Shown here one piece after another: positions 9,051 to 45,859 of a DNA stretch of 64,000 bases. The DNA is from Streptomyces sp. WZ-12 (lineage in GTDB: Bacteria > Actinomycetota > Actinomycetes > Streptomycetales > Streptomycetaceae), in contig NZ_CP118574.1 in assembly GCF_028898845.1 (NCBI RefSeq), positions 1,054,001 through 1,118,000 on the forward strand, given 5' to 3'. Position 1 is the stretch's first letter. The number at the start of each line of letters is the position of its first letter. The position numbers were made by a program, and so were the translations under genes. The notes beneath the pieces were generated by a model that saw nothing but the letters and a program-made list of their open reading frames with translations, did no database searches and had not been told where the DNA came from.

Positions 9051-9053
9051 GGC

Positions 9054-9707: not shown

Positions 9708-9711
9708 TGTG

Positions 9712-9788: not shown

Positions 9789-9848
9789 CCGCCCGAAGAA
9801 CCGGAGTTGCACCAAGATCATAACCGATCCCCGCCGCGCCCCGCACCC

Positions 9849-10585: not shown

Positions 10586-10613
10586 GGTAGGTGCACCACC
10601 TGCACCACCTACC
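10586..10613. promoter_or_regulatory. 8-bp inverted repeat ahead of a methyltransferase gene
   Basis: GGTAGGTG (10586-10593) and CACCTACC (10606-10613) are perfect inverted repeats, and CACC is repeated several times in the 12-base gap. The site lies 22 bases before the methyltransferase start at 10635 and within the region divergent from the antitoxin-like gene. It could be an operator for either gene or a leader hairpin. Confidence 0.35.
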
Positions 10614-10634
10614 GAACGAGCTGGGGAACGAGCC

Positions 10635-11300: not shown

Positions 11301-11356
11301 GCTGCTGACCTGCCGCTGAGGACGGTACAGAGGAATCGACGAAGTCGGAGGAACCG

Positions 11357-12784: not shown

Positions 12785-12863
12785 CCGTTCGCGGTGGCAG
12801 GGCGGGAGCGGGAGGACGGGACGCTGACGGGAGCCCCCTCATCGCTCGGCGGTGGACGGTGGA

Positions 12864-14678
12864 TCACAGGACGGCGTCGAGCAGCTCCCGGGTGTAGGGG
12901 GCGCGGGGTGCGGCGAAGACGGCGTCACGGGTTCCGGTCTCGACGAGCTCGCCGTCCCTCAGTACGGCGATGCGGTCGCAGAAGTGCCGTACCACCGCCA
13001 GGTCGTGGGAGATGAACAGCAGCGACAGGCCCAGTTCCGCGCGCAGGTCCATCAGCAGGTTGAGGACCTGTGCCTGGACGGACACGTCGAGCGCGGACAC
13101 CGGCTCGTCGGCGATGATCAGGCGGGGGCGCAGGGCCAACGCACGGGCGATGCCGATCCGTTGGCGCTGCCCGCCGGAGAACTCATGCGGATAACCGGAC
13201 AGTTGGGAGGAGGACAGGCCGACCTGGTCGAGGAGTTCGACGGCCCGGAGCCGGCGGGCCCGGGCGTCCAGTGTGGTGTGGATGCGCAGGGGCGTGGTGA
13301 CGAGCTCCTCGACCGTGCGGCGCGGGTTGAGGGAGGCGTAGGGGTCCTGGAAGACCAGTTGCACCTCGCGGCTCAGCTCGCGGCGCAGCGGGGTGTCCCT
13401 CGCCGCGCGGGTGATGTCCCGCCCGTCGAACCGGACCGCCCCGGCGGTGGGTTGGCGCAGGCCGGCGAGGACCCTGGCGAGGGTGGACTTGCCCGAGCCG
13501 GACTCGCCGACCAGCCCCACCGTCTCGCCGCGCGCGACGTGCAGGGACACCCCGCGCACCGCGGCGACCGGCCGCCCGCGCCGCAGCAGTGACTCCCGTC
13601 GCGCGGGGAACTCCACCCGTACGTCGGCGAGTTCGGCGAGTGCGGGGCGGTGGGGCAGATCGGCGGGGCGCGGAGCCGGCACCGAGGCGGAGACAGGGTG
13701 CCGTACCCGATCCGGTGCCGGTTCCGGCTCGTCGACGGTGGGCAGTCGGGTTCCGGGAACGGTGTCCAGGGTGGGTGCGGCGCCGATGAGGGCGCGGGTG
13801 TAGGGGTGGTCGGGGGCGGTGCGGAGCCGTTCGGTAGGGCCCTGTTCGACGACCCGGCCGGCGCGCATGACCAGCATCCGGTCGCAGGTCGCGGCGACCA
13901 CGCCCACGTCGTGCGTGATGAGCAGCATCGCGGTGCCCGCCTCGGCCTGGAGGTCGCGCAGCAGGTCGAGGACCTGGCGCTGCACCTGGGAGTCGAGCGC
14001 GGTGGTCGGCTCGTCCGCGATCAGCACGTCCGGTTCGTTGATCAACGCCATCGCGATCACCACGCGTTGCCGCATCCCGCCCGACAGTTGGTGTGGATGG
14101 TCCCCGGCGCGCCGGGCGGGGATGCCCACCCGCTCCAACATGGCGGCGGCGCGTTCCCGTGCCTGGCGGCGACTGGCCCGGCGGTGGTGGATGCGGTACG
14201 CCTCGGCGAGTTGCGCGCCCACGGTGTGGTACGGGGAGAGGGCGTCGAGCGCGTCCTGGAAGACCATGGCGAGGCGGGCGCCGCGCAGGGTCTTGAGCCG
14301 GGCCTCGGGGGCACCCACCACCTCAACGCCGGCTTCCGGCGTGGTGCCTGGGCCTTGCCCACCGGCCGAACGCCCGCCCACGTCACGGGCCGAACCACTG
14401 CTACCGCCCCGGACGCCGCCGCCGATGCGCACGCTCCCGCCGATCCGGGTGCGGCCAGGATCGTGCAGCCCCATCGTGGCCAGCCCGATGCTGGACTTGC
14501 CCGAACCGGACTCGCCGACCAGTCCCAACGTCTCGCCGGGCGCCAGCTCGAAGGAGACGCCCGCGACCGCGGTAACGGGACCGCGCGGGCTCGCGAACGC
14601 CACGCTCAGATCGCGCACACTCAGCACGGCGCCCAGTTCCCGCTCGGTTTTCGGGTCCGCTTTCACGTCCGCTTTCAT
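12864..14678 (-). CDS. Fused DppD-DppF-type ABC transporter ATPase (two nucleotide-binding domains)
   Basis: 604 residues containing two complete ATP-binding domains that are separate proteins in many Opp/Dpp systems. The first has Walker A GESGSGKS (about 55-62), signature QLSGGMRQRV and Walker B VLIADEPTTALD. The second has GESGSGKSTLARVLAG, signature EFSGGQRQRIG and LIIADEPVSALD. Each ends with the HPYTRALI/APYTRELL motif of oligopeptide/dipeptide ATPases. A Gly/Ser-rich insert (about 77-120) interrupts the first domain. The ATG at 14678 overlaps the stop of the upstream permease (ATGA). It powers uptake by the permeases and binding protein encoded upstream. Confidence 0.92.
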   Translation of the reverse strand: MKADVKADPKTERELGAVLSVRDLSVAFASPRGPVTAVAGVSFELAPGETLGLVGESGSGKSSIGLATMGLHDPGRTRIGGSVRIGGGVRGGSSGSARDVGGRSAGGQGPGTTPEAGVEVVGAPEARLKTLRGARLAMVFQDALDALSPYHTVGAQLAEAYRIHHRRASRRQARERAAAMLERVGIPARRAGDHPHQLSGGMRQRVVIAMALINEPDVLIADEPTTALDSQVQRQVLDLLRDLQAEAGTAMLLITHDVGVVAATCDRMLVMRAGRVVEQGPTERLRTAPDHPYTRALIGAAPTLDTVPGTRLPTVDEPEPAPDRVRHPVSASVPAPRPADLPHRPALAELADVRVEFPARRESLLRRGRPVAAVRGVSLHVARGETVGLVGESGSGKSTLARVLAGLRQPTAGAVRFDGRDITRAARDTPLRRELSREVQLVFQDPYASLNPRRTVEELVTTPLRIHTTLDARARRLRAVELLDQVGLSSSQLSGYPHEFSGGQRQRIGIARALALRPRLIIADEPVSALDVSVQAQVLNLLMDLRAELGLSLLFISHDLAVVRHFCDRIAVLRDGELVETGTRDAVFAAPRAPYTRELLDAVL

Positions 14679-15667
14679 GTCAGCCTCACACGGGGATCGA
14701 GCCAGGCCACCACCAGGTCGGCGAGGGCCACGAAGACGACGACGAAGAAGGCGGCGAGCAGCACCGTGCCGACGACGGTGGGCAGGTCGTTGCCGGTGAC
14801 CGCGTCGACGGCCAGCTTGCCGACGCCGCCGAGCCCGAAGACGGTCTCGGTGATGAACGCGCCGCCGAACAACGCACCGATCTCCAGCCCGAGCAGTTGG
14901 ACCAGCGGCCCGGCCGCCCCGCGCGCGGTGTACTTCAGGTGCGCACGCAGGGCGCCAAGTCCTTTGGCCCGGGCGGTGCGTACGAACCCTTCGGGCATGG
15001 TCTCCAGCATTTGCGAGCGCGTCAGACGGGCGAAGACCGCGGCGTTGACGAAGCCGAGCACCAGCCAGGGCAGCAGCAGGCCCGCGGCCCATCGGCCGGG
15101 GTGGTCGGCCAGCGGGACGTACTGCGGCATGGGCAGCAGCCCGGTGCCGTAGACCAGGAGGAGTTGCAGCAGGTAGCCGAGGAAGTAGATCTGGACGCTG
15201 GCGCCGATCAGGTTGAAGCCCGACAGCAGCCGGTCGGTCGCGGTGCCGCGGCGCAGCGCGGCGACCAGGCCCGCGCCGACGCCGAGGACGAGGATCACCA
15301 CGAGGGCGCCGCCGGCGAGCGAGACGGTCACCGGCAGGCGGTCCCCGATGGCGTCGAGGACGGGTTGGTGGAGGGCGTAGGAGTAGCCCAGGCAGGGGGC
15401 GGGGCAGTGGAGGGGGGTGCCGTCGACGTCGGCGATGGTGCGGCCGGTGACGAGGCCGCCGAGGTAGTCCAGGAACTGGGCGACCAGGGGTTGGTCGAGT
15501 CCCATGCTGGTGCGGACGGCCTCGACCTGTGCGGTGTCGCACTTGGGGCCGCAGGCGATCAGGGCCGGGTCGGAGGGGGCGGCGTAGAAGAGCCCGAAGG
15601 CCGCGGCGGCGATCGCCAACAGCACGGCGGCGGCTTGCAGGGCGCGCCTGAGGAGGTAGCTGGTCAT
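14675..15667 (-). CDS. DppB-type ABC transporter permease
   Basis: 330 residues with the N-terminal signature MTSYLLRRALQAAAVLL, six predicted membrane helices and an EAA loop (FVRTARAKGLGALRAHLKYT) that contacts the ATPase. An extended extracytoplasmic segment (about 85-125) follows the first helices, as in DppB/OppB. The gene starts 9 bp after the binding-protein gene and overlaps the ATPase gene by four bases, so it is the third cistron of the operon. Confidence 0.92.
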   Translation of the reverse strand: MTSYLLRRALQAAAVLLAIAAAAFGLFYAAPSDPALIACGPKCDTAQVEAVRTSMGLDQPLVAQFLDYLGGLVTGRTIADVDGTPLHCPAPCLGYSYALHQPVLDAIGDRLPVTVSLAGGALVVILVLGVGAGLVAALRRGTATDRLLSGFNLIGASVQIYFLGYLLQLLLVYGTGLLPMPQYVPLADHPGRWAAGLLLPWLVLGFVNAAVFARLTRSQMLETMPEGFVRTARAKGLGALRAHLKYTARGAAGPLVQLLGLEIGALFGGAFITETVFGLGGVGKLAVDAVTGNDLPTVVGTVLLAAFFVVVFVALADLVVAWLDPRVRLT

Positions 15668-15676
15668 GGCCTTCGG

Positions 15677-17455
15677 TCAGGGTGTCTTGACGAACAGGTC
15701 CGCGGCGGCGATGGAGCCGTAGATCGGGTGGATGGCGGCCCCACCGACGCGTGCGCCGCGGAACTGGGAGACGCTGCTGTAGAGGAACGGCACGAGGGGG
15801 ACGTCCTTCATCACCACTTCCTCCAGGTCGATCAGTGCCTTGGCCTTCTGCTGGGCGTCGCCGATCGCGGCGATCCGCTCCAGTTCCCGGTCCACGGCGG
15901 GGTTGGCGTAGCGGATGGAGTTGGAGAGGCTGTCCAGTCGGCTGTCGAAGCTGTCCGGCAGCAGCGTCGAAGGGGTGGGCCAGTCAACGGAGTTGGTGGA
16001 CAGCCACAGGTCGTAGGGGGCCGGTCCGCGGAAGACCTCGCTGTGGAAGGCGGCCGGTTCCAGGCGCTTGACGACGAGCGTGATGCCGGCCTTGCCGAAG
16101 GCGTCGCTGAGTACCTGGGCGAGCCGGTCGTCCTGCGGACTGTCCGCCGCGTAGGCGTAGGTGAGGTGGGTGACCTTGGTCCTGGCCTTGGCGAGGTGTT
16201 CCCTGGCCTTGGCGAGGTCGCCGGTGGGCGCGACCGGGTACGGGTCGTACTTCCGCCAGCCGACGACGGCCGGCGAGGAGAGGGTGGTGGCGAAGTCGCC
16301 GACGTGGGAACCGCCGAGGACCTGGCGGGCCTGGGCCCGGGGGAAGAGGTAGTGGATGGCCTTGCGGACCTCGGGATCGGTGACCCGGCTGTTCTTGATG
16401 TAGAGGTCCTGGGTGTAGGCGCCGCGGCTGCCGGACACGATCAACTTCCGCTTGGCCGGGTCGCGTTCGGCCGTCGCGAGCAGTTCCGGCGGCACCTCGC
16501 CCTTGGTACTGACCGTGGTCGGGCCGTCGCCGCGCCCGTTGAACACCTCCTGGGCGGTGTTGAGGGCCTGCTTGCCGAAGGTGAACACGAAGCGGTCCGG
16601 GTACTGGTGGCGGATCGGGTCGGTCTCCGCCTTCCAGTGCGGGTTGCGCTCCAGCGTGAGGCGCTGGTTCTGCTTGTGCTCGACGATCCGGTACGGGCCG
16701 CTGGCGAACGGTGTGACGTCGTAACCGGTTCCGGTGTCCTTGTCCTTGCGGACCGGCGAGGAGGATGACTGGGCGGCCATGTACGGGACATCGGCCTGTG
16801 GCTCGGGGAAGTGGAAGACGAGGGTCTTGTCGTCCGGCGTCTCGATGGCGTCGAGGTCGCCGTCCGCGGGCCCCCGGTACTTCTTCACGGCCGCGCTGCG
16901 GTCCTTCGACCCGGTGAGCCACTCCGGCCAGTAGGTGGGGCCGGCCTCGAAGCCCGGGGCGAAGGTGCGCTCGATCCCGTACTTGACCTGCGCGGCGGTG
17001 ATCGGCTTGCCGTCTTCCCAGGCAATGCCGTCCTTGAGGTGGTAGGTCCAGGTGCGGCCGCCGTCGGCGGAGGTACCGGTGTCGGTGGCCAGGTCGCCCA
17101 CCAACGTCGGTTTGCCGTTGACGACTTGATACTGCGTCAACTGTCTGCCCCAGAGCAGTGAGGTGCTGTAGCTCTCTCCCGTGTAGATCTTCTGGGGGTC
17201 CAGGTGCGGGTAGTCGGTGGCGTTGGCGACGGTCACGGTGCCGCCCGTCCTGGCGCCGGGCACCGCGGGCGCCGGCCCCGCGCTGTCCTTCGCGGTCCCC
17301 AGGGACGCGGTCAGGCGCTTGCCGCTCTTCGCCGCCGTGCTCTCCTTCCCGTCCCGCGCGCCGGCTCCCGCGCCCGCGGAGCAGGAGCACAGCAACAGGG
17401 CGGTGACGGTGGCGAGGACGGGCAGGGCGGCGGCGCGCGGGGGAATTCCGGGCAT
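15677..17455 (-). CDS. Family 5 extracellular solute-binding lipoprotein (peptide/nickel type)
   Basis: 592 residues with a lipoprotein signal (ALPVLATVTALLLCSCSAG, acylated Cys near residue 25) and the SBP_bac_5 fold: YPHLDPQKIYTG, LVGDLATDTGTSADGGRTWT, YHLKDGIAWEDGKPITAAQV and a C-terminal lobe through SQFRGARVGGAAIHPIYGSI. It captures its ligand outside the membrane for the DppB/DppC permeases encoded on either side. The ligand could be an oligopeptide, nickel chelate or other compound. The ATG at 17455 is the only start that exposes the lipobox. Confidence 0.92.
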   Translation of the reverse strand: MPGIPPRAAALPVLATVTALLLCSCSAGAGAGARDGKESTAAKSGKRLTASLGTAKDSAGPAPAVPGARTGGTVTVANATDYPHLDPQKIYTGESYSTSLLWGRQLTQYQVVNGKPTLVGDLATDTGTSADGGRTWTYHLKDGIAWEDGKPITAAQVKYGIERTFAPGFEAGPTYWPEWLTGSKDRSAAVKKYRGPADGDLDAIETPDDKTLVFHFPEPQADVPYMAAQSSSSPVRKDKDTGTGYDVTPFASGPYRIVEHKQNQRLTLERNPHWKAETDPIRHQYPDRFVFTFGKQALNTAQEVFNGRGDGPTTVSTKGEVPPELLATAERDPAKRKLIVSGSRGAYTQDLYIKNSRVTDPEVRKAIHYLFPRAQARQVLGGSHVGDFATTLSSPAVVGWRKYDPYPVAPTGDLAKAREHLAKARTKVTHLTYAYAADSPQDDRLAQVLSDAFGKAGITLVVKRLEPAAFHSEVFRGPAPYDLWLSTNSVDWPTPSTLLPDSFDSRLDSLSNSIRYANPAVDRELERIAAIGDAQQKAKALIDLEEVVMKDVPLVPFLYSSVSQFRGARVGGAAIHPIYGSIAAADLFVKTP

Positions 17456-17514
17456 GGCGAACTCCAACGTGGATGGGGAGGGATGGGGAAGGGGGTGGAG
17501 AAGGGCGGGCCGGA

Positions 17515-18570
17515 TCAGCGGAGGTTGCGGAGGGCCCGGGGGTCGAGGGCGTCCCGCACCCCGTCGCCGAGGATGTTGAAGGCGAGGACGAAGAGGAGGA
17601 TCGCCACTCCGGGGAAGACCATGTAAGTGGGGTCGTCGTAGAAGACCTCGGCACCGCGGGAGATCATGCGGCCCCAGTCCGGAATCGGCTCGTTGATGCC
17701 GACGCCCAGGAACGAGAGCGCGGCCTCGGCGGTGACGAGGCCCGGCACGGCGAGGGTGAGGTGCACCAGGACCGGCGCCCAGACATTGGGCAGCAACTCC
17801 CGGAAGACGATGTGCGCTCGGCTCGCGCCCATCGCCCGCGCCGCCTCGACGAACTCCCGCTCCCGCAACGAACGGACGGCGGTGCGCAGCACCATGGCCA
17901 GCGGCACCCAACCGAAGGCCGAGAACACCAGGATGAGCACCGTGAACTGCATCCAGGCGGGCTCGTTCTGCCCCGACCCCACGAAGCGGGTCTGGATGAT
18001 CGGGCTCAGCGCCAGCAGCAACAGCAGCGTCGGGAAGGCCAGGAGGACGTTGCAGACGAAGGTGAAGGCCCGGTCGACGACGCCGCTGAGGTACCCGACG
18101 GTGACGCCGACCACCACTCCGACGACCGCGATCACGGCCGCCGACGCGCACGCGATCAGCAGCGACGTCCGCATGCCGGAGAGCAGTTGGGCCAGCACGT
18201 CCCGGCCGAGCCCGGGCTCGATGCCGAACCAGTGGTCGGCGGAGATCCCGCCGTTGGCCAGCACCGGCAGCCCTTCCGGGCTCAGCAGCCCGGGCGCGTT
18301 CTGCCCGTAGTGCTCGGTGGCGTTCTTCCCGTAGAGGGACGTGAGCACGGGCGCGGCCAGCGCCAGGAACACGTACAGGCAGACCACACCGAGCGCGACC
18401 AGGCTGATCCGGTCGCGGCACAGCGCCCGCAACGGCGCGGCGAGCGGGCCGCGATGCCGTGCGTCGTCCGACTCCGACGCGGGCTCCGGCTCCGGTACCG
18501 GTACCGACTCCAGCTCCGGCTCCGCAACGGGCTTCGGCCCCGGTGGTTCCACTGGCAAAGGTGCTGCCAT
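17515..18570 (-). CDS. DppC-type ABC transporter permease
   Basis: About 350 residues. A Pro/Glu-rich cytosolic tail (PEPELESVPVPEPEPASESD) precedes six membrane helices and the EAA loop FVEAARAMGASRAHIVFREL, with the typical end FNILGDGVRDALDPRALR. It is the first gene of a four-gene uptake operon running permease, binding protein, permease, fused ATPase. I place the start at the ATG at 18570, with GGGAG about 9 bases upstream; the frame remains open to 18651 with an alternative start. Confidence 0.9.
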   Translation of the reverse strand: MAAPLPVEPPGPKPVAEPELESVPVPEPEPASESDDARHRGPLAAPLRALCRDRISLVALGVVCLYVFLALAAPVLTSLYGKNATEHYGQNAPGLLSPEGLPVLANGGISADHWFGIEPGLGRDVLAQLLSGMRTSLLIACASAAVIAVVGVVVGVTVGYLSGVVDRAFTFVCNVLLAFPTLLLLLALSPIIQTRFVGSGQNEPAWMQFTVLILVFSAFGWVPLAMVLRTAVRSLREREFVEAARAMGASRAHIVFRELLPNVWAPVLVHLTLAVPGLVTAEAALSFLGVGINEPIPDWGRMISRGAEVFYDDPTYMVFPGVAILLFVLAFNILGDGVRDALDPRALRNLR

Positions 18571-36792: not shown

Positions 36793-36990
36793 ATGTTTGA
36801 CGCCCTGAAGAACCTCAAGGAGAAGGCCGAGGAGATCGCCGAGGCACACGGCGACAAGATCTCCGACGGGCTGGAGAAGGTCGGCGGGTTCATCGACGAC
36901 CGGACCGAGCACAAGCACAGCGACAAGATCGACACCGCCGTCGACAAGGCCCAGGGCTTCGTCGAGAAGCTGGGCGACAAGAAGTCCTGA
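36793..36990 (+). CDS. MT0933/Rv0909-like antitoxin family small protein
   Basis: 65 residues, highly charged and helical: MFDALKNLKEKAEEIAEAHG, ISDGLEKVGGFIDDRT and KIDTAVDKAQGFVEKLGDKK. This matches the MT0933_antitox family, named after Rv0909, the partner of a polyketide-cyclase-like toxin (Rv0910). Here no toxin gene is adjacent, so it is an orphan member, as is common in Streptomyces. GGAG lies 12 bases before the ATG. Confidence 0.85.
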   Translation: MFDALKNLKEKAEEIAEAHGDKISDGLEKVGGFIDDRTEHKHSDKIDTAVDKAQGFVEKLGDKKS

Positions 36991-37248: not shown

Positions 37249-38316
37249 ATGAGACGCAGGCGCTCCCTCCGCACCGCCCTCACCGCTACCGTCACCGCCG
37301 TCGCCACGGCCGGCCTGACCGCCCTGGGCGGTGGCGCCGCCCACGCGGCGACCCCGCTCCCGACCCATGTGTTCGCGCCGTACTTCGAGTCGTGGACGGG
37401 CGAGAGCCCCGCCGCGCTCTCCGCCCAGTCCGGTGCCAAGCACCTGACGATGGCGTTCCTCCAGACCGAGTCCAAGGGCTCCTGCACGCCCTATTGGAAC
37501 GGGAGTACCGAGACGCCGGTCTCCGCGTCCTCCTTCGGTGACGACATCAAGACCATCCAGGGCAAGGGGGGCGATGTCATCCCCTCCTTCGGCGGCTACA
37601 CCGCGGACACCACCGGCACCGAGATCGCGGACAGTTGTACCGACGTCCAGAAGATCGCCGCCGCGTACGAGAAGGTGATCACGACCTACGACGTGTCGCG
37701 GCTCGACATGGACATCGAGGCCGACTCGCTGGACGACTCGGCCGCGGTCGACCGGCGGAACAAGGCCATCAAGCTGGTCGAGGACTGGGCGGCGACCAAC
37801 GGGCGGAAGGTGGAGATCTCCTACACCCTCCCGACGACGACCCAGGGCCCGGCCGACAGCGGAACCGCCCTGTTGCAGAACGCGGTCAGCAACGGCGCGC
37901 GGGTGGACGTCGTCAACATCATGACGTTCGACTACTACGACAACGCCACCCACAACATGGCCAACGACACCCAGACCGCGGCCCAGGGCCTGTACGACCA
38001 GCTCAATCAGCTCTACCCGGACAAGGCGCCGGCCCAGTTGTGGGCGATGGTCGGCATCATCGAGATGCCCGGCGTCGACGACTTCGGGCCGGCCGAGACG
38101 TTCAGCCTCGACAACGCCAACCAGGTCTACAAGTGGGCGGTGGACAAGGGCATCAACACCCTGTCGTTCTGGGCCCTCCAGCGGGACAACGGGAGCTGTC
38201 CCGGCGGCGCGTCGGCCGACAACTGCTCCAGCATCCCGCAGCAGACCTGGGACTTCACCCATGTCTTCGCGCCGTTCACCGGCGGCGGGACCGCGGGGCC
38301 GACGGCCTCCCGGTGA
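37249..38316 (+). CDS. Secreted GH18 chitinase
   Basis: 355 residues. A Sec or Tat-like signal peptide (MRRRRSLRTALTATVTAVAT, cleavage near AHAA-TP) leads to a single GH18 barrel with no carbohydrate-binding module. The catalytic motif DxxDxDxE appears as SRLDMDIEAD, with D153, D155 and acid/base E157. YFESWTGESP and FDYYDNATHNMAND fit the small actinobacterial chitinases such as ChiC/endo-type relatives. It hydrolyses chitin outside the cell and is probably induced through the direct repeats at its promoter. The ribosome-binding site is weak (GGGA). Confidence 0.9.
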   Translation: MRRRRSLRTALTATVTAVATAGLTALGGGAAHAATPLPTHVFAPYFESWTGESPAALSAQSGAKHLTMAFLQTESKGSCTPYWNGSTETPVSASSFGDDIKTIQGKGGDVIPSFGGYTADTTGTEIADSCTDVQKIAAAYEKVITTYDVSRLDMDIEADSLDDSAAVDRRNKAIKLVEDWAATNGRKVEISYTLPTTTQGPADSGTALLQNAVSNGARVDVVNIMTFDYYDNATHNMANDTQTAAQGLYDQLNQLYPDKAPAQLWAMVGIIEMPGVDDFGPAETFSLDNANQVYKWAVDKGINTLSFWALQRDNGSCPGGASADNCSSIPQQTWDFTHVFAPFTGGGTAGPTASR

Positions 38317-38370: not shown

Positions 38371-39588
38371 CTATGGCGCGGTCCGGGCCCCGTCGTGCGC
38401 CGGTTGGTCGGCGTCGGCCGGGGCCGCCGGTGGTGTCCAGCGGATGCGTGTGCCGCACAGCGAGACCACCAGCGCGGAGGCGGCGACGGCGGCCATGCCC
38501 CAGACCAGTCCGGCGGCGTTGGCGATGAAGCCGATGACGGGCGGACCGGCGAGCAGGCCGGTGGTGCCCATGGCGGCGACCAGCGTGAGTGCCTGGGGAC
38601 CCTGTCCGGCCGCGGCCACGTAGACGCAGGGGGTGACGGCCGCGATGCCCAGACCGACGCAGGCGAAGCCGATCAGGGCCGGCAGCACGCCGCCGCTCAA
38701 CAGGGCGAGCGCCAGGCCGACTCCGGCCAGTGCGCTGCCGACGCGGACGATCCTCCCGTCGCCCCAGCGGCTCCGCCAACCATCGGCGAACAGGCGGGAC
38801 AGCACCATCACGCCGGAGACGACGGCGATGCCCATGGGCGCCAGTTCCGCGGACGCCCTGGCGACGTCCTTGAGGTAGAGGGCCGACCAGTCGTTCATGG
38901 CGCCCTCGGTCACCGTGCCGAACGCCATGGCGCAGCACATCCACAGCGTCAGGCGGGAGGGCAACGCCCAGCGACGGCCGGCGTGTTGCCGTTCCCGGCC
39001 CGCCGCGGGCCGCTCGTCGGTGAGCAGCCCGGGCCGGGCGCAGCCGAGCAACAGCAGGAGCACCGCGGCGGCCGCCGCGAAGTGCACGACGACGGTCGCG
39101 GTCAGCGCGGTCACGCCGGAGGCCAGTACGGCCGCGGCCAACGACCCGGCGCTGAACGTTGCGTGCAGCTTGGACATGGCGTTGCGCCCGTGTCTGGATT
39201 CCAGGGCGGCGCCCTGGGCGTTCATGGCGACGTTCAGGCAGCCCACGAGCAGGCCGTCGCCGCACATCACCACCAGCGCGGTCGGGTAGTTGGGCGCCGC
39301 GGCCAGCGCGAACAGCAACAGGGTCAGGCAGAGCGCCGACCACAGCGCCAGGCGCCTGGCGCCCAGCCGGTTCATCAACAGCGTCACCAGGGGGAACGAG
39401 GCCGCCGCGCCGACGCCGGCGGCCATCAGCAGCACGCCAACTTCCGCCGCGGACAAGCCGAGTTGGGCCTTGATGGCGGGGATCCGGGAGGCCCAGGTGG
39501 CGTACTGGAACCCCAGGGTGAAGAACAGGGCCGCGATCGCCAACAGCGTCCGGAGGAACGGATCGGATATGCGGAACGCCGGCATCAT
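38371..39588 (-). CDS. MFS exporter, last gene of the five-gene operon
   Basis: About 405 residues with 12 predicted helices. FFTLGFQYATWASRIPAIKA near the start and NVAMNAQGAALESRHGRNAM are typical of the YbjJ-like MFS exporters. The ATG at 39588 overlaps the GNAT stop by four bases (ATGA). As the last gene of an overlapping biosynthetic operon it probably exports the product or gives self-resistance. The product is unknown. Confidence 0.87.
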   Translation of the reverse strand: MMPAFRISDPFLRTLLAIAALFFTLGFQYATWASRIPAIKAQLGLSAAEVGVLLMAAGVGAAASFPLVTLLMNRLGARRLALWSALCLTLLLFALAAAPNYPTALVVMCGDGLLVGCLNVAMNAQGAALESRHGRNAMSKLHATFSAGSLAAAVLASGVTALTATVVVHFAAAAAVLLLLLGCARPGLLTDERPAAGRERQHAGRRWALPSRLTLWMCCAMAFGTVTEGAMNDWSALYLKDVARASAELAPMGIAVVSGVMVLSRLFADGWRSRWGDGRIVRVGSALAGVGLALALLSGGVLPALIGFACVGLGIAAVTPCVYVAAAGQGPQALTLVAAMGTTGLLAGPPVIGFIANAAGLVWGMAAVAASALVVSLCGTRIRWTPPAAPADADQPAHDGARTAP

Positions 39589-40196
39589 GCCCCTTCTCGG
39601 AGGTTGGCCTTGTGGCCGGATCTGTTGTCGTCGCATGCGTTGACGCGTTGGTGGTGTGGTGCCGCCGGTGTCGGCAGCGGCCGGGACATGTAGACGGCGT
39701 GCGGGCCGTACTCGTCCGGGGAGACCACTCCGGGGTGGGAGTGGAATCCGTTGGCCGCCCAGAAGGGTTCGCTGCCGGCGACGGCGATCAGGGAGATCTG
39801 CTGGTAGCCGTCGCGCGTCGCCGTGGTCGTGAGGTGGTGCAGGAGGTGCCTGGCCAGTCCCCGGCGGCGGAGCGGTTCGGCGATGACCAGGTCGTGCAGG
39901 TGGAGGTTGCGGGAGGGGGGCGAGGGGCGTTCCGGGCGGGTCAGGTCCGGGTAGTGGAACGCCGGGTAGGGCAGGGCCAACAGGTAGCCCGCCAGCCGCC
40001 GGTGGAGGTCGAGGGCGAAGCAGGTGTCCGGTGAGGCGTGGGCGCGGGAGGCGAGGGCGGCGGGCTCCTCGGACAGTCCGAGGGCGGCGTAGGCGCGGGA
40101 CTCCAGGGCGGTGATGGCGTCCCAGTCGTCCGTCGTGAGGGGGCGGATGCGGGGGCTGGTGTCGCGGGCGTTGGTGGTGTCGCGGTTCATCGGCAT
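39585..40196 (-). CDS. GNAT-family N-acetyltransferase in the operon
   Basis: About 203 residues. GNAT landmarks are IRPLTTDDWDAITALESRAY at the start, an acetyl-CoA loop VIAEPLRRRGLARHLLHHL, and IAVAGSEPFWAANGFHSHPG. It probably acetylates an amine of the operon's product or precursor, perhaps the amine made by the neighbouring decarboxylase; self-protection is the other common role. Starts at 40205 (GTG), 40196 and 40190 are all in frame. GGAGG 10 bases before 40196 favours that one, which overlaps the decarboxylase gene by 10 bases. Confidence 0.82.
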   Translation of the reverse strand: MPMNRDTTNARDTSPRIRPLTTDDWDAITALESRAYAALGLSEEPAALASRAHASPDTCFALDLHRRLAGYLLALPYPAFHYPDLTRPERPSPPSRNLHLHDLVIAEPLRRRGLARHLLHHLTTTATRDGYQQISLIAVAGSEPFWAANGFHSHPGVVSPDEYGPHAVYMSRPLPTPAAPHHQRVNACDDNRSGHKANLREGA

Positions 40197-41431
40197 CCGC
40201 AGCACACCTCCGCGACCGGTTGTGCCTGTGGGCGGTGCGGTGGGGCGTGGTGTCTGGTGCCCGTGCCGTGGATCCAGGTGTACGGGGGCGGGTGGAAGCC
40301 GTTGAAGCCCCGGGTCAGATAGGAGAGGGCGTAGGCGCCGCAGGAGAGCAGCCAGACCGGGTCGCCGGAGGCGAGGCCCGCGGGCACCTGGACGGGGCCG
40401 CGTTCGGGCGCGAAGGCGTCGTCGCTGTCGCAGGTGGGGCCGGCCACGAAGGCGGGGAGGGTCGGGCCGGCGGGGTGCGTGGGGAAGGCCATCCGGTACG
40501 TCAACTGGTCCATTTCATACAGGCCGTTGAACTTGCCGACGCTGAGGTACAGCCAGCGCTGCCGCTCGCCGTTGGGCTGTCGGCGGGTGGTGAGGCGGGT
40601 CACGTGGGCCCGGATGGCTCCGTGGTCCGCGACGAGGTAACGGCCCGGTTCGATACGGAAGTCGAGGGGGTGTCCGCAGGTGTCGGTGAGGCGCGCCATG
40701 CCCTCCCGGATGACGGTGAAGATCTTGTCCACGGGCGGGGCGAGGGGTCCGCCGCGTACGTCGGCGTAGCCGAGGGCCGGCAGGCCGCCGCCGAGGTTGA
40801 CGTGGTCCACGCGGATGCCGCGCCGGTGCAGGGCGGTCAGGGTCCCCGCGGCGAGGTCGAGGGCGCGGCGCCAGGCGTCGGCCGTCATCTGTTGGGAACC
40901 GACGTGGAAGGAGAGCCCGGACGGGGTCAGTCCGGCGTCCTGGGCCGCGGCCAGGACGCGGACCGCGTCGGCGGAGGAGCAGCCGTGCTTGTGGGTCAGT
41001 CCCCACAGCGCGCCGTCGCCGTCGGTGGCCAGGCGGCAGAACACCCGGGCGCCGGGGGCGTGGGCGGCGAGGGCCGCGACGTCCTCCAGGCTGTCCGTGG
41101 CGAAGTCCCGCACGCCGAGCCGGTGCGCCTCGGCGATGTCCCGGTCGGACTTGACGGTGTTGCCGTAGTGGATCCGGTCGAGCGGGATACCGGCGCGGAG
41201 TGCCTGGGCGATCTCGCGGGGACTGGCCGCGTCGGCGCCCGCGCCCCGGCGCGCCAGGCAGGCGAGGACGGCGTCCATCGGGCAGGACTTCATGGCGAAG
41301 CGGACGGCGGCGCCGGGCAGTTCGCGTTGCAGGGTGGCGTGGCTCTCGGCGATGCCGGCCAGGTCGTAGACGATCTGGTCGTGGTCCGCGGCCGCCAGGG
41401 CGGCGCGCAGGGCGGGGTTGTCGGTGATCAT
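40187..41431 (-). CDS. Fold-III PLP decarboxylase (ornithine/diaminopimelate decarboxylase-like)
   Basis: 414 residues with the ODC-fold order. PLP lysine in RFAMKSCP (K48), HVGSQ (176-180), phosphate-binding GGG (214-216), EPGRYLVA (261-268), CDSDD (334-338) with the catalytic Cys, and GAYALSY...FNGF (365-379). The CDSDD box and short length resemble ornithine decarboxylases rather than LysA. It should decarboxylate a basic or modified amino acid, giving an amine for the operon's product. An unusual Cys-rich tail ends VCCGCR. Its ATG overlaps the DUF6271 stop (41428-41431), so translation is coupled. Confidence 0.88.
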   Translation of the reverse strand: MITDNPALRAALAAADHDQIVYDLAGIAESHATLQRELPGAAVRFAMKSCPMDAVLACLARRGAGADAASPREIAQALRAGIPLDRIHYGNTVKSDRDIAEAHRLGVRDFATDSLEDVAALAAHAPGARVFCRLATDGDGALWGLTHKHGCSSADAVRVLAAAQDAGLTPSGLSFHVGSQQMTADAWRRALDLAAGTLTALHRRGIRVDHVNLGGGLPALGYADVRGGPLAPPVDKIFTVIREGMARLTDTCGHPLDFRIEPGRYLVADHGAIRAHVTRLTTRRQPNGERQRWLYLSVGKFNGLYEMDQLTYRMAFPTHPAGPTLPAFVAGPTCDSDDAFAPERGPVQVPAGLASGDPVWLLSCGAYALSYLTRGFNGFHPPPYTWIHGTGTRHHAPPHRPQAQPVAEVCCGCR

Positions 41432-42759
41432 CGGCGGTCCCGGTCCGGCTGGTGGGGGAACGGGTGCGGGCCGGTGGCGCGGCTCGCGTCGATCAGCGCC
41501 GCCCATGCCTCGATGAGCAGGGCGAAGTCCGCCATGTCCTGCCCGGCCTCATGGAGCAGGCGTTCCCGGCGCGGGGCGAGGGTGTCGGCGAACGCCGCGT
41601 ATTTTCCGCCCAGTTGACGGTAGGAGGCGTCGAGGACGTCCAGTCGTCGGACGTTCTCGGTGCGGTCCAGTGCGGTGCTCTCGCGGACCAGCGCGGCGAT
41701 CGCGGGGGCGCGTACCTGGTGTTGGTCGTCGAGGAGCGCGTCGCCCGCGGCGGCCATCCGGTCGTAGAGGAAGTTGAGGTAGAGCATGGAGAGGAAGAAC
41801 TTGGCGAACCGGGTCTGGTAGGCGGGGAATCCGGGGCCGGTGCGGCGTTCGCCGGTGTAGAAGTTCACGATGTTGCGGTTGTGGAGGACGCCCGGCAGGC
41901 CGGCGTCGTGCACCAGGTGGATGAGGAAGTAGTCGCTGCCGATGGTGTTGGTGGCGGGCGGCAGCGGGACGCGTTCGTGCACGCGGTGGAAGCTGATGTT
42001 GCACATGTCCACCCGCATGGGGTCGATCAGGCCCAGGACGGAGTGGTCGCGGGTGAACGGGGCCGTGCCGCCGCCCCGGAACGACTCGGCGGCGAGCTCC
42101 CGCTTGGCCTGCTCCGACCAGTGCCCTGGCGCCCACAGGCCGACCACGTCGGCGTAGACGTTCGGGTCCAGGCGGTGGATCTCGGCGATGTCCACGGAGA
42201 GTTCGCCGATGAAGGAACTGCCCACCATCGTCACGGGCTTGGGCGCGTGCCGCGGGTCCAGGGTGGTCGCGTAGACGTGGCGCGCCGCGTCGCCGGCGGG
42301 CCGTCCGAGGGCGCGGAGCTCGTGGTGGATCGGGAAGACCGGGGTGCCGTTGCTGGTCTGGTAGCGGCTGTCCGAGTCCCGGCGGTGGACGGACTGGCAG
42401 CCGAGGGCGGCGGCGATCAGGAACGCCCGGTTGGTGCAGGCGCCGTAGGAGGGCTCCGTCGGGAGCATGAGGTCCAGCATCAGGTCGGGCTTGGCGACGC
42501 CGGAGTCCCGGATCACCCGCCGCAGGAAGCCGCGTTGGGCGCGTTCGCCGAGGTGGTGTGCGATGACGTTCGGCGGGCGGGGGGTCTCCCGCACGGCCCG
42601 GGCGTGTGCGGCTAACGCCTCGCCGTCGCAGGAGTCCAGGACCAGCAGGTGGACCGCGACGTCGAAGTGTTCGGCGGCGTAGGCGGCCTCCTCGCCGAGG
42701 GCCCTGATCGCCGGGGCGCAGGGCCGGTTGGTGGGCAGGGTCAGGCAGATTGTGCGCAT
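41428..42759 (-). CDS. DUF6271 glycosyltransferase-like protein
   Basis: 443 residues. The N-terminus MRTICLTLPTNRPCAPAIRA starts like a GT-A nucleotide-sugar fold. A DxD-type motif occurs in VHRRDSDSRYQ (about 125-135), followed by TMVGSSFIGELSVDIAEI and SDYFLIHLVHDAGLPGVLHN, resembling the acceptor side of family-2-like glycosyltransferases. The family is DUF6271 as I recall it, with no established function. The gene overlaps the dioxygenase gene by 19 bases and the decarboxylase gene by four, so the three are translated as a unit. GGGAG lies 7 bases before the ATG at 42759. Confidence 0.75.
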   Translation of the reverse strand: MRTICLTLPTNRPCAPAIRALGEEAAYAAEHFDVAVHLLVLDSCDGEALAAHARAVRETPRPPNVIAHHLGERAQRGFLRRVIRDSGVAKPDLMLDLMLPTEPSYGACTNRAFLIAAALGCQSVHRRDSDSRYQTSNGTPVFPIHHELRALGRPAGDAARHVYATTLDPRHAPKPVTMVGSSFIGELSVDIAEIHRLDPNVYADVVGLWAPGHWSEQAKRELAAESFRGGGTAPFTRDHSVLGLIDPMRVDMCNISFHRVHERVPLPPATNTIGSDYFLIHLVHDAGLPGVLHNRNIVNFYTGERRTGPGFPAYQTRFAKFFLSMLYLNFLYDRMAAAGDALLDDQHQVRAPAIAALVRESTALDRTENVRRLDVLDASYRQLGGKYAAFADTLAPRRERLLHEAGQDMADFALLIEAWAALIDASRATGPHPFPHQPDRDRR

Positions 42760-43805
42760 GCGCCCGCTCCCGTGGGTTCGGCGGCGTCCTGCCCGGTCCA
42801 GGAGTCGAGGCCGAGGAGCCTGGCGCCCAGTTCGTCGAGCACCGCCGGGCCGTAGCGGAGGGATTCGTGGCGCCGGGCGTCGCCGACCAGGGTGGCGTTC
42901 CAGTCCGGCGTCCGCCGGTGCCGCCAGGAGTCGACCCGGGAGGCGCGCAGGGCGCGGTGTTCTTCGAGGGCCGGCATCATGGAGAGGTACTGGACGGCGC
43001 GGACGTCGTCCCGGGAGGTGTTGGCGGCGACGCCGTGCGCCAGCAGGCCGTTCCAGATCAGTAGGTCGCCGGCGGCCAACTCGGGCCGGATGACGGGGAG
43101 TTCGTTGGGGTCGAAGGCGGGACGGAGCGGGTCCCGGTCGGCCGGTTGGCGCGCCTTCCACTGGTCGAACCGGCGGAACAGTTCGGGCGCGCACTGGAAT
43201 CCGCCGCAGTCCGGCCGGGTGTCGTCCAGCGCGATGATGCCCTGGACGCGCTGCGGCAGCACCCCGAGGGTGGTGTCGATGTCCCAGTGGAGTTCGATGT
43301 CGAAGCCGCGCTCGGTCGGCGCGATGAGCGCGCGGTCGCGGTTGTTGATGTTGGGCGGGTTGAGGTTGAGCCGGTCCAGGGTGACCCACAGTTCCGGGCA
43401 GTCCCAGACATCGACGAACGCGTCGTAGACCCGTTGCGTCTGGCGGCTGTCCCAGAGGTACTGGTGGTGGTACGCCTCGACGAATCCGTAGATGTGCAGT
43501 TCCCGGTCGAGGTCCGAGCGGAACGGCCGGTCCTGGTACCAGGTGTCGGGGCGGGCCGGGTCGAGTCCCTGGAAGTCCCAGGCGAAGTCCAGCAGGCGCC
43601 TGGCGGCGGAGGGCGGGATGGCCTCCTTGACCACGACGAAGCCGTAGGTCTGCCAGAAGGCGAAGTCCGCCTCGGACAGCACCCGCAGCTCGTGCGTCTT
43701 GCGCAGTTCGTGCAGCGCGGTGCGGGCCAGGTAGGTCTCGCCGTCCGCGCTGAAGTAGGGGATGTCGGAGGCGGCTCGGTACAGGTATGCGTCGGTCGCC
43801 GGCAT
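42741..43805 (-). CDS. Phytanoyl-CoA dioxygenase-family Fe(II)/2-oxoglutarate oxygenase
   Basis: 354 residues. The iron site is visible as ELHWDID (H173, D175) and LLAHGVA (H257), with the 2-oxoglutarate arginine probably R265 or R269 (TSRDDVRAVQY). RGFDIELHWDIDTTLGVLPQ and CGGFQCAPELF fit PhyH proteins that hydroxylate amino acids or small metabolites in natural-product pathways. It is the first gene of the operon. The ATG at 43805 has GGAG 7 bases upstream; the open frame continues to 44027 without another good start. Substrate unknown. Confidence 0.87.
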   Translation of the reverse strand: MPATDAYLYRAASDIPYFSADGETYLARTALHELRKTHELRVLSEADFAFWQTYGFVVVKEAIPPSAARRLLDFAWDFQGLDPARPDTWYQDRPFRSDLDRELHIYGFVEAYHHQYLWDSRQTQRVYDAFVDVWDCPELWVTLDRLNLNPPNINNRDRALIAPTERGFDIELHWDIDTTLGVLPQRVQGIIALDDTRPDCGGFQCAPELFRRFDQWKARQPADRDPLRPAFDPNELPVIRPELAAGDLLIWNGLLAHGVAANTSRDDVRAVQYLSMMPALEEHRALRASRVDSWRHRRTPDWNATLVGDARRHESLRYGPAVLDELGARLLGLDSWTGQDAAEPTGAGACAQSA

Positions 43806-44055: not shown

Positions 44056-44072
44056 AGTGGACTAGACCAACT
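44056..44072 (-). promoter_or_regulatory. DasR-type dre palindrome upstream of the PhyH operon
   Basis: On the minus strand the site reads AGTTGGTCTAGTCCACT, close to the DasR consensus (A/G)TGGTCTAGACCA. Bases 44059-44070 are identical, on the minus strand, to the first chitinase direct repeat TTGGTCTAGTCC. It lies 251 bases before the dioxygenase start and 184 before the promoter-proximal GH3 sites. Control by DasR and therefore by glucosamine-6-phosphate is inferred. Confidence 0.7.
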
Positions 44073-44229: not shown

Positions 44230-44259
44230 TTGACAGTGCGGATTGGACTAGGCCAATAT
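44230..44259 (+). promoter_or_regulatory. GH3 promoter overlapped by dre palindrome TTGGACTAGGCCAA
   Basis: TTGACA at 44230-44235 and CAATAT at 44254-44259 form a promoter with an 18-base spacer. The palindrome TTGGACTAGGCCAA (44243-44256) occupies the spacer and the -10 region, so a bound repressor would block RNA polymerase. Confidence 0.7.
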
Positions 44260-44320: not shown

Positions 44321-45859
44321 ATGTCCTCCACCACGCACAGCAAGGAGTTGCGACGACTCGCTCTCTCCGTCCTCCAGCCGGGCTTCGTGGGCACCGAGGC
44401 GCCGGACTGGGTCCTGCGCGCCATCGGTGACGGACTGTCATCCGTCGTGCTCTTCGCCCGGAACATCGCCTCGGCCGAGCAGGTCGCCCGACTGGCCGCT
44501 CAACTCCGCGCCGAGAACCCGGCATTGATCATCGCGATCGACGAGGAGGCCGGGGACGTCACCCGGCTGGAATCCGCGACCGGCGCCACCCGGCCCGGCA
44601 ACCTCGCCCTCGGCACCGTGGACGACCCGGAGCTGACCGAGGCCGTCGCCCGCGACCTGGGGCACCAACTGCGCGCCGCCGGCGTGAGCCTGGACTACGC
44701 GCCCAGCGTGGACGTCAACTCCAACCCCGACAACCCCATCATCGGCGTCCGCTCGTTCGGCGCCGATCCCGCGCGGGTCTCCCGCCACGCCACGGCCTGG
44801 ATCCGGGGCCTACAGTCGGCCGGCGTGGCCGCCTGCGCCAAGCACTTCCCCGGGCACGGGGACGTCGCCGTCGACTCCCACCACGGCCTGCCCCGTTACG
44901 ACGCGAGCCCGGACGAGATCGCCGCGCAGGCGCTGCCGCCCTTCCGGGCGGCGGTGGCGGCGGGCGTGGGCGCGGTGATGAGCGGCCACCTCCTGGTGCC
45001 CGCCCACGACGCCGACCTCCCGGCCACCCTGAGCCCCCGACTCCTCAACGACCTGCTCCGCAAGGAACTCGGCTTCGAGGGGCTGATCGTCACCGACGCC
45101 ATCGAGATGGGCGCCGTCGCGGACCGCTACGGCATCGGAGGCGCCGCGGTCCGGGCCGTCGCCGCCGGCGCGGATGCGGTCTGCGTCGGCGGGGAGAACG
45201 CCGACGAGGCCACCGTGGCCCGCCTGGTCGAGGCGCTCACCACCGCCTCGTCCGGCGGCGAACGCGCCGCGGAGCGCCTCGAAGAGGCCGCCGAACGGGT
45301 CCGGGCGTTCGCCGCGTGGTCCCGGGCGCTGGGTCGCAGCGCCCCGGTGGACCCCGTCAACCGGGACATCGGCTTCGTCGCCGCCCGCCGCGCCATCCGG
45401 CTGCGCGGCGCCGCGGCCGCCGCCCTCCCCCTGGCCGCTCCCCCGCACGTGGTGGAGCTGGTGCCCTCGACCAACCTCGCCATCGGCAAGGAGACGCCGT
45501 GGGGCGTCGGCGCACCGCTGCGGGAACGGCTGCCCGGCACCACCTTCGTCCGGGTCCCGCATCAGCAACTCGCCGACCGGCCGGCGGTGTTGGCCGACCA
45601 CGCGCTGGCCCCCGCCGCCGGGCGCCCGCTGGTCGTCGTCGTCCGGGACGCCGCCCGGCACGCGTGGATGGGCCGCGCGCTGGTCGAGCTCACCGCGGCC
45701 CGCCCGGATGCCGTCGTGGTCGAGATGGGCCTGCCGGGCGGCTCGCTTCCCGGAGCCGTGCAGGTCCTCACGCACGGCGCGACGGCCGCCTCCGGCGTCG
45801 CCGCGGCGGAGGTGCTGGCGGGCGGCCGCCCGGGACGGGCCGCGGCGGTCTCCGGCTAG
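44321..45859 (+). CDS. GH3 beta-N-acetylglucosaminidase (NagZ-like)
   Basis: 512 residues of glycoside hydrolase family 3. The NagZ-type motif KHFPGHGDVAVDSHHGLPRY (174 onwards) carries the His that replaces the usual acid/base, and VTDAIEM gives nucleophile D259. The C-terminal 180 residues form a second alpha/beta domain, as in longer actinobacterial members. No signal peptide is present, so it probably cleaves imported chito-oligosaccharides or muropeptides in the cytosol. DasR-type operators at its promoter link it to GlcNAc metabolism. Confidence 0.9.
   Translation: MSSTTHSKELRRLALSVLQPGFVGTEAPDWVLRAIGDGLSSVVLFARNIASAEQVARLAAQLRAENPALIIAIDEEAGDVTRLESATGATRPGNLALGTVDDPELTEAVARDLGHQLRAAGVSLDYAPSVDVNSNPDNPIIGVRSFGADPARVSRHATAWIRGLQSAGVAACAKHFPGHGDVAVDSHHGLPRYDASPDEIAAQALPPFRAAVAAGVGAVMSGHLLVPAHDADLPATLSPRLLNDLLRKELGFEGLIVTDAIEMGAVADRYGIGGAAVRAVAAGADAVCVGGENADEATVARLVEALTTASSGGERAAERLEEAAERVRAFAAWSRALGRSAPVDPVNRDIGFVAARRAIRLRGAAAAALPLAAPPHVVELVPSTNLAIGKETPWGVGAPLRERLPGTTFVRVPHQQLADRPAVLADHALAPAAGRPLVVVVRDAARHAWMGRALVELTAARPDAVVVEMGLPGGSLPGAVQVLTHGATAASGVAAAEVLAGGRPGRAAAVSG

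What the first reader, a model, noticed from the sequence alone, without database searches (positions are those of the whole stretch)
38371..43805. Five-gene overlapping biosynthetic operon with no known product (PhyH, DUF6271, ODC-fold decarboxylase, GNAT, MFS)
All five genes overlap or touch (19, 4, about 10 and 4 bp), which implies one pathway. The set provides a hydroxylation (Fe/2OG), a DxD glycosyl transfer-like step, an amino-acid decarboxylation, an acetylation and export. That is a complete mini-pathway to a hydroxylated, decarboxylated and possibly glycosylated amine. I do not recognise it from any described natural-product class. No NRPS, PKS or RiPP gene is involved, so standard cluster predictors may miss it.
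Basis: partly seen in the sequence, partly recalled or inferred. Interest (0 to 1): 0.88.

Follow-up and report, generated by a model that had tools for sequence, protein, structure and literature searches.

The report
GlcNAc-linked Streptomyces operon, product unknown
A tightly packed five-gene operon found in many Streptomyces, sitting behind a switch site of the type that senses chitin sugar, looks like an undescribed pathway for making and exporting a small molecule, and it has a sister version in which the later genes are swapped for peptide-building parts.

Summary
In detail: five co-directional genes (PhyH oxygenase, DUF6271, ODC-fold decarboxylase, GNAT, MFS) overlap by 19, 4, about 10 and 4 bp. 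DUF6271 occurs in 65 of 199 genomes of the home genus; 111 of 114 distinct loci of this type keep all five genes in order, one with only a decarboxylase remnant. Two things go beyond the finding. First, a DasR-type (chitin/GlcNAc) operator lies within 700 bp upstream of PhyH in 95 of 130 loci; 59 control palindromes average 0.15 hits. A GH3 hexosaminidase gene is often attached. Second, in 16 of 58 genus loci, and in S. clavuligerus, PhyH-DUF6271 is kept but the tail is replaced by an amino acid:[carrier protein] ligase, a probable carrier protein, a phosphopantetheinyl transferase, a condensation-domain protein and another MFS. So PhyH-DUF6271 looks like a core with interchangeable tails. The chemistry is inferred: the decarboxylase resembles lysine/ornithine enzymes; DUF6271 has a weak but above-control profile match to GT2 glycosyltransferases. 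No structure could be predicted (server never free), ten paper searches found nothing on the operon, and the product is unknown.

The parts
42741..43805 (-). PhyH-family Fe(II)/2-oxoglutarate oxygenase (354 aa), first gene of the operon; relatives are also named DUF1479 or YbiU family
   Evidence: Pfam PhyH 1.4e-8; Gig2-like 2.4e-5, below that family's cut-off; names of relatives among the best 120 of 3755; H173, D175, H257, R269 conserved
41428..42759 (-). DUF6271 protein (443 aa), uncharacterised; HRRDSD motif; possibly a GT-A-like transferase
   Evidence: Pfam PF19787 6.2e-232; invariant residues across 73 members; profile score to GT2 above 199 column-shuffled controls
40187..41431 (-). 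Fold-III PLP decarboxylase, closest solved relatives are lysine/ornithine decarboxylases
   Evidence: 5gjm E 3.1e-34, 2plj E 4.2e-32; E306, D308 and C334-D335 conserved
39585..40205 (-). GNAT acetyltransferase (start ATG 40196 or GTG 40205)
   Evidence: Acetyltransf_1 1.9e-9
38371..39636 (-). MFS transporter (start ATG 39588 or 39636)
   Evidence: MFS_1 3.9e-22
44056..44071 (-). DasR-type operator (dre) GTTGGTCTAGTCCACT upstream of PhyH, in the intergenic region shared with the GH3 gene
   Evidence: conserved upstream of PhyH in relatives
44242..44257 (-). second, weaker dre-like site ATTGGCCTAGTCCAAT
   Evidence: two mismatches in the 12-base core, so not counted
44321..45859 (+). divergent GH3 family gene (beta-N-acetylhexosaminidase-like by context), a second copy beside the one in the genome's das locus
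   Evidence: Glyco_hydro_3 4.6e-73; other copy in L188; GH3 lies within 4 kb of PhyH in 78 of 114 A loci and 0 of 16 B loci
37249..38316 (+). GH18 (chitinase family) gene beyond the MFS end; not part of the conserved unit
   Evidence: Glyco_hydro_18 9.2e-17; not in any gene family shared by 4 or more of the 61 stretches compared

Best explanation
This is one member of a widespread, apparently undescribed biosynthetic operon family of Streptomyces and relatives that belongs to the chitin/GlcNAc (DasR) regulon. SHOWN by sequence: a PhyH-DUF6271 core with a conserved overlap; two alternative tails (A: decarboxylase, GNAT, MFS; B: amino acid:[carrier protein] ligase, probable carrier protein, PPTase, condensation domain, another MFS); a DasR-type operator upstream of PhyH in most A loci and in the 16 B loci examined. 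INFERRED: amino-sugar phosphates from chitin relieve DasR repression (recalled mechanism) and switch the operon on; PhyH hydroxylates a basic amino acid or an amino-sugar intermediate; DUF6271, a GT-A-like metal-dependent transferase, adds a (possibly GlcNAc-derived) group to make a shared building block; in A the decarboxylase removes the carboxylate of an ornithine- or lysine-like unit, the GNAT caps an amine with acetyl and the MFS exports the product; in B the amine is instead aminoacylated through the carrier protein and condensation domain.
For: Five-gene order in 111 of 114 A loci and overlaps. 65 of 199 genomes of the home genus have DUF6271; PhyH precedes it in 58 of 58 close-family loci examined. 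A and B (42 and 16 loci) split cleanly in both the PhyH and the DUF6271 tree, support 1.0 for the B clade. dre core: 124 hits in 90 kb upstream of PhyH against 56 in 2.5 Mb elsewhere; 59 palindromes of the same composition average 0.15 and reach at most 6. Typical sites resemble dre sequences listed for S. coelicolor dasR (cttggtctagtccata) and ptsH (agttgtctagaccagt). GH3 beside the operon in 78 of 114 A loci, a DasR-like gene in 22; the 13 genus-sample genomes with that gene all carry a canonical DasR as well. One B ligase matches amino acid--[acyl-carrier-protein] ligase 1 at 6.6e-25; condensation domain and PPTase pass their Pfam cut-offs. Decarboxylase nearest to lysine/ornithine decarboxylases. 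DUF6271 profile against GT2: score 29.3, best of 199 shuffles 18.2.
Against: No product, expression or binding data. DUF6271 has no confident relative and its fold could not be predicted; hhalign probability to GT2 is only 7-20%. The PhyH substrate is not constrained: no solved relative and no NCBIfam model. The Streptomyces carrier protein is weak: no Pfam hit for one, below cut-off for another. The PPTase and carrier families were found in 13 and 12 of 16 B loci. MFS direction is unknown. 35 of 130 loci lack a dre core within 700 bp, 14 of 114 A loci even within 6 kb, some because the contig ends; the lone S. clavuligerus pair has none in 19 kb. In the home genome alone exact cores are no commoner than the reversed control (3 against 2). 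Known dre sites lie mainly at catabolic and transport genes.
Confidence: 0.55

Rival explanations
1. A catabolic or salvage operon of the DasR regulon: the MFS imports, and the enzymes degrade or detoxify, a chitin- or cell-wall-associated amine or glycoside (the GH3 enzyme removing GlcNAc).
For: Predicted DasR targets are primarily primary metabolism, sugar transport and polysaccharide hydrolysis genes, besides antibiotic genes (passage of PMC4398421); das-like ABC transporter and GH3 genes attached in many loci; MFS also hits sugar transporter models (MFS_2 just above, LacY_symp below cut-off).
Against: Sister architecture B, built on the same PhyH-DUF6271 core and the same kind of operator, carries a PPTase, aminoacyl ligase, condensation domain and probable carrier protein, which are biosynthetic. 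That acetylation fits synthesis or self-protection better than breakdown is my inference.
Confidence: 0.2
2. DUF6271 is not a sugar transferase but a transferase or ligase acting on amino acids, in some clusters carrier-bound ones; the product is a modified dipeptide or acyl-amino acid without a sugar.
For: DUF6271 relatives sit beside amino acid:[carrier protein] ligase-like and carrier-protein genes both in Streptomyces B loci and on an Apilactobacillus kunkeei plasmid that also has two ATP-grasp ligases, aminotransferase, methyltransferase and MFS; on a S. microflavus plasmid beside asparagine synthase-related and GNAT genes.
Against: Architecture A as mapped has no carrier protein gene in the operon. 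The one profile match that exceeds controls is to GT2, though only GT2 and five other families were compared. The S. microflavus cluster also has an annotated glycosyltransferase, so sugar chemistry is around.
Confidence: 0.3
3. A siderophore-like or hydroxyectoine-like pathway (decarboxylase, oxygenase, acyltransferase) of a known type.
For: Same reaction types as desferrioxamine (decarboxylation, oxygenation, GNAT-type acylation) or hydroxyectoine (GNAT, PhyH); recalled comparison.
Against: No NCBIfam model hits the PhyH (that an EctD model is in that library is recalled), and no solved structure does. The decarboxylase is fold III, not the DesA type (recalled). None of the five is a siderophore synthetase; the neighbouring families that I scanned are not either, but several recurring neighbours (F15-F30) were not identified.
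Confidence: 0.04
4. Unrelated neighbours that merely overlap, with no common pathway.
For: Tight packing is common in Streptomyces (recalled).
Against: Order kept in 111 of 114 loci with overlaps while most other neighbours are not shared.
Confidence: 0.01

Closest known systems
DasR / N-acetylglucosamine regulon of Streptomyces (dasR-dasABC, nag, chi genes)
   Same: Operator core TGGTCTAGWCCA-like upstream; attached GH3 and, in a subset, a DasR paralogue and das-type ABC transporter
   Different: Encodes oxygenase, DUF6271, decarboxylase, GNAT and MFS rather than sugar uptake and catabolism enzymes; binding by DasR is not shown
Lysine/ornithine decarboxylases of PLP fold III (5gjm, 2plj; source organisms Selenomonas ruminantium and Vibrio vulnificus recalled)
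   Same: Domain order and catalytic motifs
   Different: Specificity-helix region reads GKFNGLYEMD instead of the ODC-type sequence; lies in a conserved five-gene operon
Amino acid--[acyl-carrier-protein] ligase 1 (Bll0957, 3mey; Bradyrhizobium recalled)
   Same: B-type clusters and the Apilactobacillus plasmid carry relatives next to a carrier-protein-like gene
   Different: Not part of this window's architecture A
Hydroxyectoine genes (EctA GNAT, EctD PhyH; recalled)
   Same: A GNAT plus a PhyH enzyme
   Different: The operon lacks EctB/EctC-type genes; the PhyH hits no solved structure and no NCBIfam model
Desferrioxamine genes (desABCD; recalled)
   Same: Decarboxylase, oxygenase, acyltransferase logic; DasR is reported to touch siderophore biosynthesis (passage)
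   Different: Different decarboxylase fold and oxygenase type (recalled); no siderophore synthetase among the five genes

Membership tests
DasR regulon | dre operator A(G/C)TGGTCTAGACCA(G/C)T upstream | tested here: met
   Window core has one mismatch; enriched in relatives against 59 control palindromes, though 35 of 130 loci lack it within 700 bp
DasR regulon | DasR binds and GlcNAc or GlcN-6P derepresses | not testable with these tools
   needs EMSA or ChIP and RT-qPCR
GT-A (GT2-like) glycosyltransferases, for DUF6271 | detectable profile similarity with DxD in register | tested here: inconclusive
   full-length hhalign aligns DSD with the GT2 DxD, probability 7.1%; the N-terminal part alone gives 19.9% but aligns only the region before DSD; score above 199 shuffles and six other controls; hmmscan of 73 members finds no GT family among the 25 families shown
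GT-A (GT2-like) glycosyltransferases, for DUF6271 | GT-A fold in a structure | not tested
   prediction server was busy at each of 24 attempts
Ornithine/lysine decarboxylases (PLP fold III) | PLP lysine, GGG loop, EPGR, CD motif, Y near C-terminus (roles recalled) | tested here: met
   K48, G214-216, E261-R264, C334-D335, Y367 at least 97% conserved in 121 sequences
Ornithine/lysine decarboxylases (PLP fold III) | acidic residue in the specificity helix for a terminal amine (recalled) | tested here: inconclusive
   E306 and D308 conserved but the segment is one residue longer than in ODC by my reading of the alignment
PhyH Fe/2OG oxygenases | HxD...H facial triad and 2OG arginine | tested here: met
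   H173-x-D175, H257, R269 at least 97% conserved in 138 sequences; Pfam PhyH above cut-off
Ectoine hydroxylase EctD | EctD model or structure match | tested here: not met
   no NCBIfam hit and no PDB sequence hit; that both libraries hold EctD is recalled
NRPS-type assembly (architecture B only) | activating ligase, PPTase, condensation domain | tested here: met
   for B loci, not for this window
NRPS-type assembly (architecture B only) | carrier protein | tested here: inconclusive
   no Pfam hit for the L065 protein; PP-binding 0.002, below cut-off, for S. clavuligerus; the Apilactobacillus one passes (1e-5)

The most novel reading that the evidence does not exclude
PhyH-DUF6271 is a previously unrecognised biosynthetic core that makes one conserved building block, and evolution has fitted it with interchangeable finishing modules (decarboxylate and acetylate, or aminoacylate through a stand-alone carrier protein), giving a whole class of chitin-cued small molecules in some 30% of Streptomyces species, with DUF6271 as a new enzyme family also used by bee lactobacilli.
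Probability: 0.45. Interest if true: 0.78.

Novelty: new variant of a known kind. Interest (0 to 1): 0.64.

Why it matters
Streptomyces are mined heavily for natural products, yet close DUF6271 relatives are in 62 of 199 genomes of the genus sampled, PhyH being adjacent in all 58 loci examined, while no paper in the library names DUF6271. It gives a ready-made experiment: the inducer is predicted (GlcNAc or chitin through DasR), S. clavuligerus and Streptantibioticus cattleyicolor carry B- and A-type copies on large plasmids, and two natural versions of the pathway can be compared to assign each step.

Tried and rejected
TGA 'stops inside' DUF6271 were reported for 6 genomes; the 4 with a fetched locus (L027, L029, L030, L031) were checked and the TGA is the ordinary C-terminal stop. 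A transketolase link (split transketolase beside DUF6271 in S. clavuligerus and in Apilactobacillus) was considered; neither pair finds a relative in the other 141 stretches, so it is probably not general. Homology of DUF6271 to NTP transferase, PhyH, decarboxylase, GNAT and MFS profiles was used as control and is absent. The number of exact dre cores in the home genome alone (3, against 2 for the reversed-pattern control) is not above chance; the argument rests on conservation of position. Mutual exclusion of A and B (none of the 58 genomes examined was seen to hold both; P 0.019 if independent among 199) is suggestive only and post hoc: 4 of the 62 genomes with close DUF6271 (G056, G073, G102, G138) were not examined in full. 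In the DUF6271 tree the A/B split carries support 1.0 on the B side and 0.33 on the A side of the midpoint root. Counts come from 138 PhyH-bearing loci, 8 of them dropped as identical over 400 bases; the 80 named loci are the best of 322 matches to an alignment led by this window's protein, so they favour architecture A; several stretches end soon upstream of PhyH, so some missing dre or GH3 are contig ends. Gene calls in the stretches are from my own simple caller. Of the home genome's 23 GT2 and 16 NTP-transferase matches, 16 and 13 were used as profiles. Structure prediction never ran.
Full report
OBSERVATION. The five genes are where the finding puts them, on the minus strand, with overlaps of 19, 4, about 10 and 4 bp. 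Pfam supports all five families. NCBIfam has no model for the oxygenase or DUF6271 and only sub-threshold relatives for the other three. The window is position 1054001-1118000 of contig 1 of a 9.55 Mb genome whose only DUF6271 match is this one.

BREADTH AND ORDER. DUF6271 was found in 65 of 199 genomes of the home genus; in 3 of these (G037, G156, G127) only distant forms, leaving 62 with the close form. In a sample of 396 genomes over the phylum all 5 hits were in the home genus, 1 of 236 genera. I fetched up to 19.5 kb around 60 hits: 57 close and 3 distant. With the window, 42 of 58 close loci have this architecture (A) and 16 have another (B). A scan of named species genomes found 322 relatives and kept the best 80, all of type A: mostly Streptomyces, with Actinacidiphila, Kitasatospora, Streptacidiphilus, Streptantibioticus, Embleya, Streptoalloteichus, Actinokineospora and one record labelled Rhodococcus rhodnii. 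After removing 8 identical copies, 114 A and 16 B loci remain; 111 of 114 A loci hold all five genes in order on one strand. One of the 111, L069, has only a decarboxylase remnant. The exceptions are L109 (MFS inverted) and two contig ends. With my own gene caller, PhyH-DUF6271 overlap or touch in 52 of 54 pairs, DUF6271-decarboxylase in 29 of 39, decarboxylase-GNAT in 25 of 35, GNAT-MFS in 26 of 35. In A loci the commonest shared neighbours are the GH3 and das genes; most other flanking genes are shared by fewer than four stretches.

SISTER ARCHITECTURE. In B, PhyH and DUF6271 are followed by a condensation-domain protein (fused to DUF6271 in L061, L066 and L074) and another MFS; encoded on the other strand are a short class II tRNA-synthetase-like protein, a small acidic protein and a PPTase. 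By clustering, the synthetase-like, condensation and MFS families are in 16 of 16 B loci, the PPTase in 13 and the small protein in 12. The synthetase-like protein of L075 matches amino acid--[acyl-carrier-protein] ligase 1 at 6.6e-25. The small protein is a carrier protein by size and context only: no Pfam hit in one case, below cut-off in another. The same set lies on a 0.7 Mb Streptomyces clavuligerus plasmid. In both trees all 16 B sequences form one clade with support 1.0, so each tail has stayed with its own version of the core. None of the 58 genomes examined was seen to hold both (chance 0.019; suggestive only).

REGULON. The window has GTTGGTCTAGTCCACT at 44056-44071 between the operon and a divergent GH3 gene, and a weaker site at 44242-44257. 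The DasR operator is given as A(G/C)TGGTCTAGACCA(G/C)T, and S. coelicolor sites listed include cttggtctagtccata (dasR) and agttgtctagaccagt (ptsH) (PMC4398421, passages seen); many A sites look like the former and most B sites like the latter. Over 130 loci the 12-base core with at most one mismatch occurs 124 times in the 700 bp before PhyH (95 loci) and 56 times in the other 2.5 Mb; 59 palindromes of the same composition average 0.15 and reach at most 6. Within 700 bp it is in 79 of 114 A and 16 of 16 B loci; within 6 kb, in 100 of 114 A. The misses count against universality, though some stretches end early. S. clavuligerus (B) and Streptantibioticus cattleyicolor (A) each have one core in about 19 kb, just before PhyH; the second S. 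clavuligerus PhyH-DUF6271 pair has none. In 22 of 114 A loci a DasR-like gene is present; of 13 such loci in the genus sample, 10 also have the DasABC-like set. All 13 of these genomes also have a canonical DasR at 89-92% to the home one, while the cluster copy is at 63-74%. The home genome has a das locus elsewhere with DasR, DasABC, GH3 and a glucosamine-6-phosphate isomerase family gene; its next-best hit to the cluster DasR is only 42%. In the home genome alone exact cores are no commoner than chance.

MECHANISM. Presumed catalytic residues of the oxygenase and decarboxylase are at least 97% conserved. The decarboxylase is nearest to lysine/ornithine decarboxylases, and two acidic residues stay in the specificity segment, which suggests a substrate with a terminal amine; this is inference. 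DUF6271 keeps PTNR, G107/N111, HRRDSD, D277, H294 and W420 invariant or nearly so over 73 members. A profile comparison to 16 GT2 domains of the home genome puts DSD on the GT2 DxD at 7% probability; the N-terminal part alone gives 20% but aligns only the stretch before DSD. In both the score 29.3 exceeds 199 shuffles (best 18.2) and six other controls. Plain profile scans find nothing convincing. So a GT-A transferase is my preferred but unproved reading. Since A and B share PhyH and DUF6271 but not the tail, these two should make the common unit and the tails finish it: decarboxylation and acetylation in A, aminoacylation in B.

WIDER FAMILY. Distant DUF6271 proteins occur in Paenibacillus, Clostridium and metagenomes; in a Streptomyces microflavus plasmid cluster with GNAT, DegT aminotransferases, LOG protein, glycosyltransferase and asparagine synthase-related genes (L090 and L091 look alike by eye, not scanned); and on Apilactobacillus kunkeei plasmids (6 records, one examined) with an aminoacyl:carrier ligase-like gene, carrier protein, two ATP-grasp enzymes, methyltransferase, aminotransferase, split transketolase and MFS. 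The paper on those plasmids names pLPX for a surface protein; the passages I saw do not mention this cluster (PMC9648514).

LITERATURE. No paper in the library names DUF6271. Searches combining PhyH, decarboxylase, DasR, carrier protein ligase and S. clavuligerus pSCL4 terms listed nothing on the operon by title and abstract start. Passages of two other papers (PMC6520443, PMC6335953) showed different clusters.

VERDICT. A real, conserved, apparently undescribed pathway family with a credible inducer and an informative sister version; product and the DUF6271 reaction unknown.

Noticed in passing
L229 (S. clavuligerus plasmid pF1D18A) 4869-13787 and L231 (S. clavuligerus plasmid pF1D10B) 7937-10332: S. 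clavuligerus carries a B-type cluster on one plasmid and, on another plasmid from a different strain, a PhyH-DUF6271 pair closest to A types but without decarboxylase, GNAT or MFS relatives and without a dre core.
   Followed up: partly
L232 (Apilactobacillus kunkeei plasmid, locus tags PLPX) 8453-17941: An apparent biosynthetic cluster: two ATP-grasp ligases, amino acid:[ACP] ligase-like protein, carrier protein, MFS, methyltransferase, aminotransferase, DUF6271, split transketolase. The ligase-like, carrier, MFS and DUF6271 genes are annotated as hypothetical.
   Followed up: partly
L090, L091 and L233 (S. microflavus plasmid): A separate cluster with distant DUF6271, glycosyltransferase, LOG protein, DegT aminotransferases, GNAT, histidine phosphatase-family and asparagine synthase-related proteins; product unknown.
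   Followed up: no
L056-L059, L062, L064, L068, L076, L078, L079: A second, paralogous dasR-dasABC-GH3 set linked to the operon in these genomes, which also carry a canonical DasR elsewhere.
   Followed up: partly
L069 (G088): The decarboxylase is reduced to a remnant of about 53 aligned residues while relatives of the other four genes remain, a natural hint on whether the step is dispensable.
   Followed up: no
window 36793-36990: Small MT0933-like antitoxin protein (Pfam PF14013) upstream of the GH18 gene.
   Followed up: no
L161: A complete A-type operon in a record labelled Rhodococcus rhodnii NRRL B-16535; could be real transfer or a mislabelled strain.
   Followed up: no
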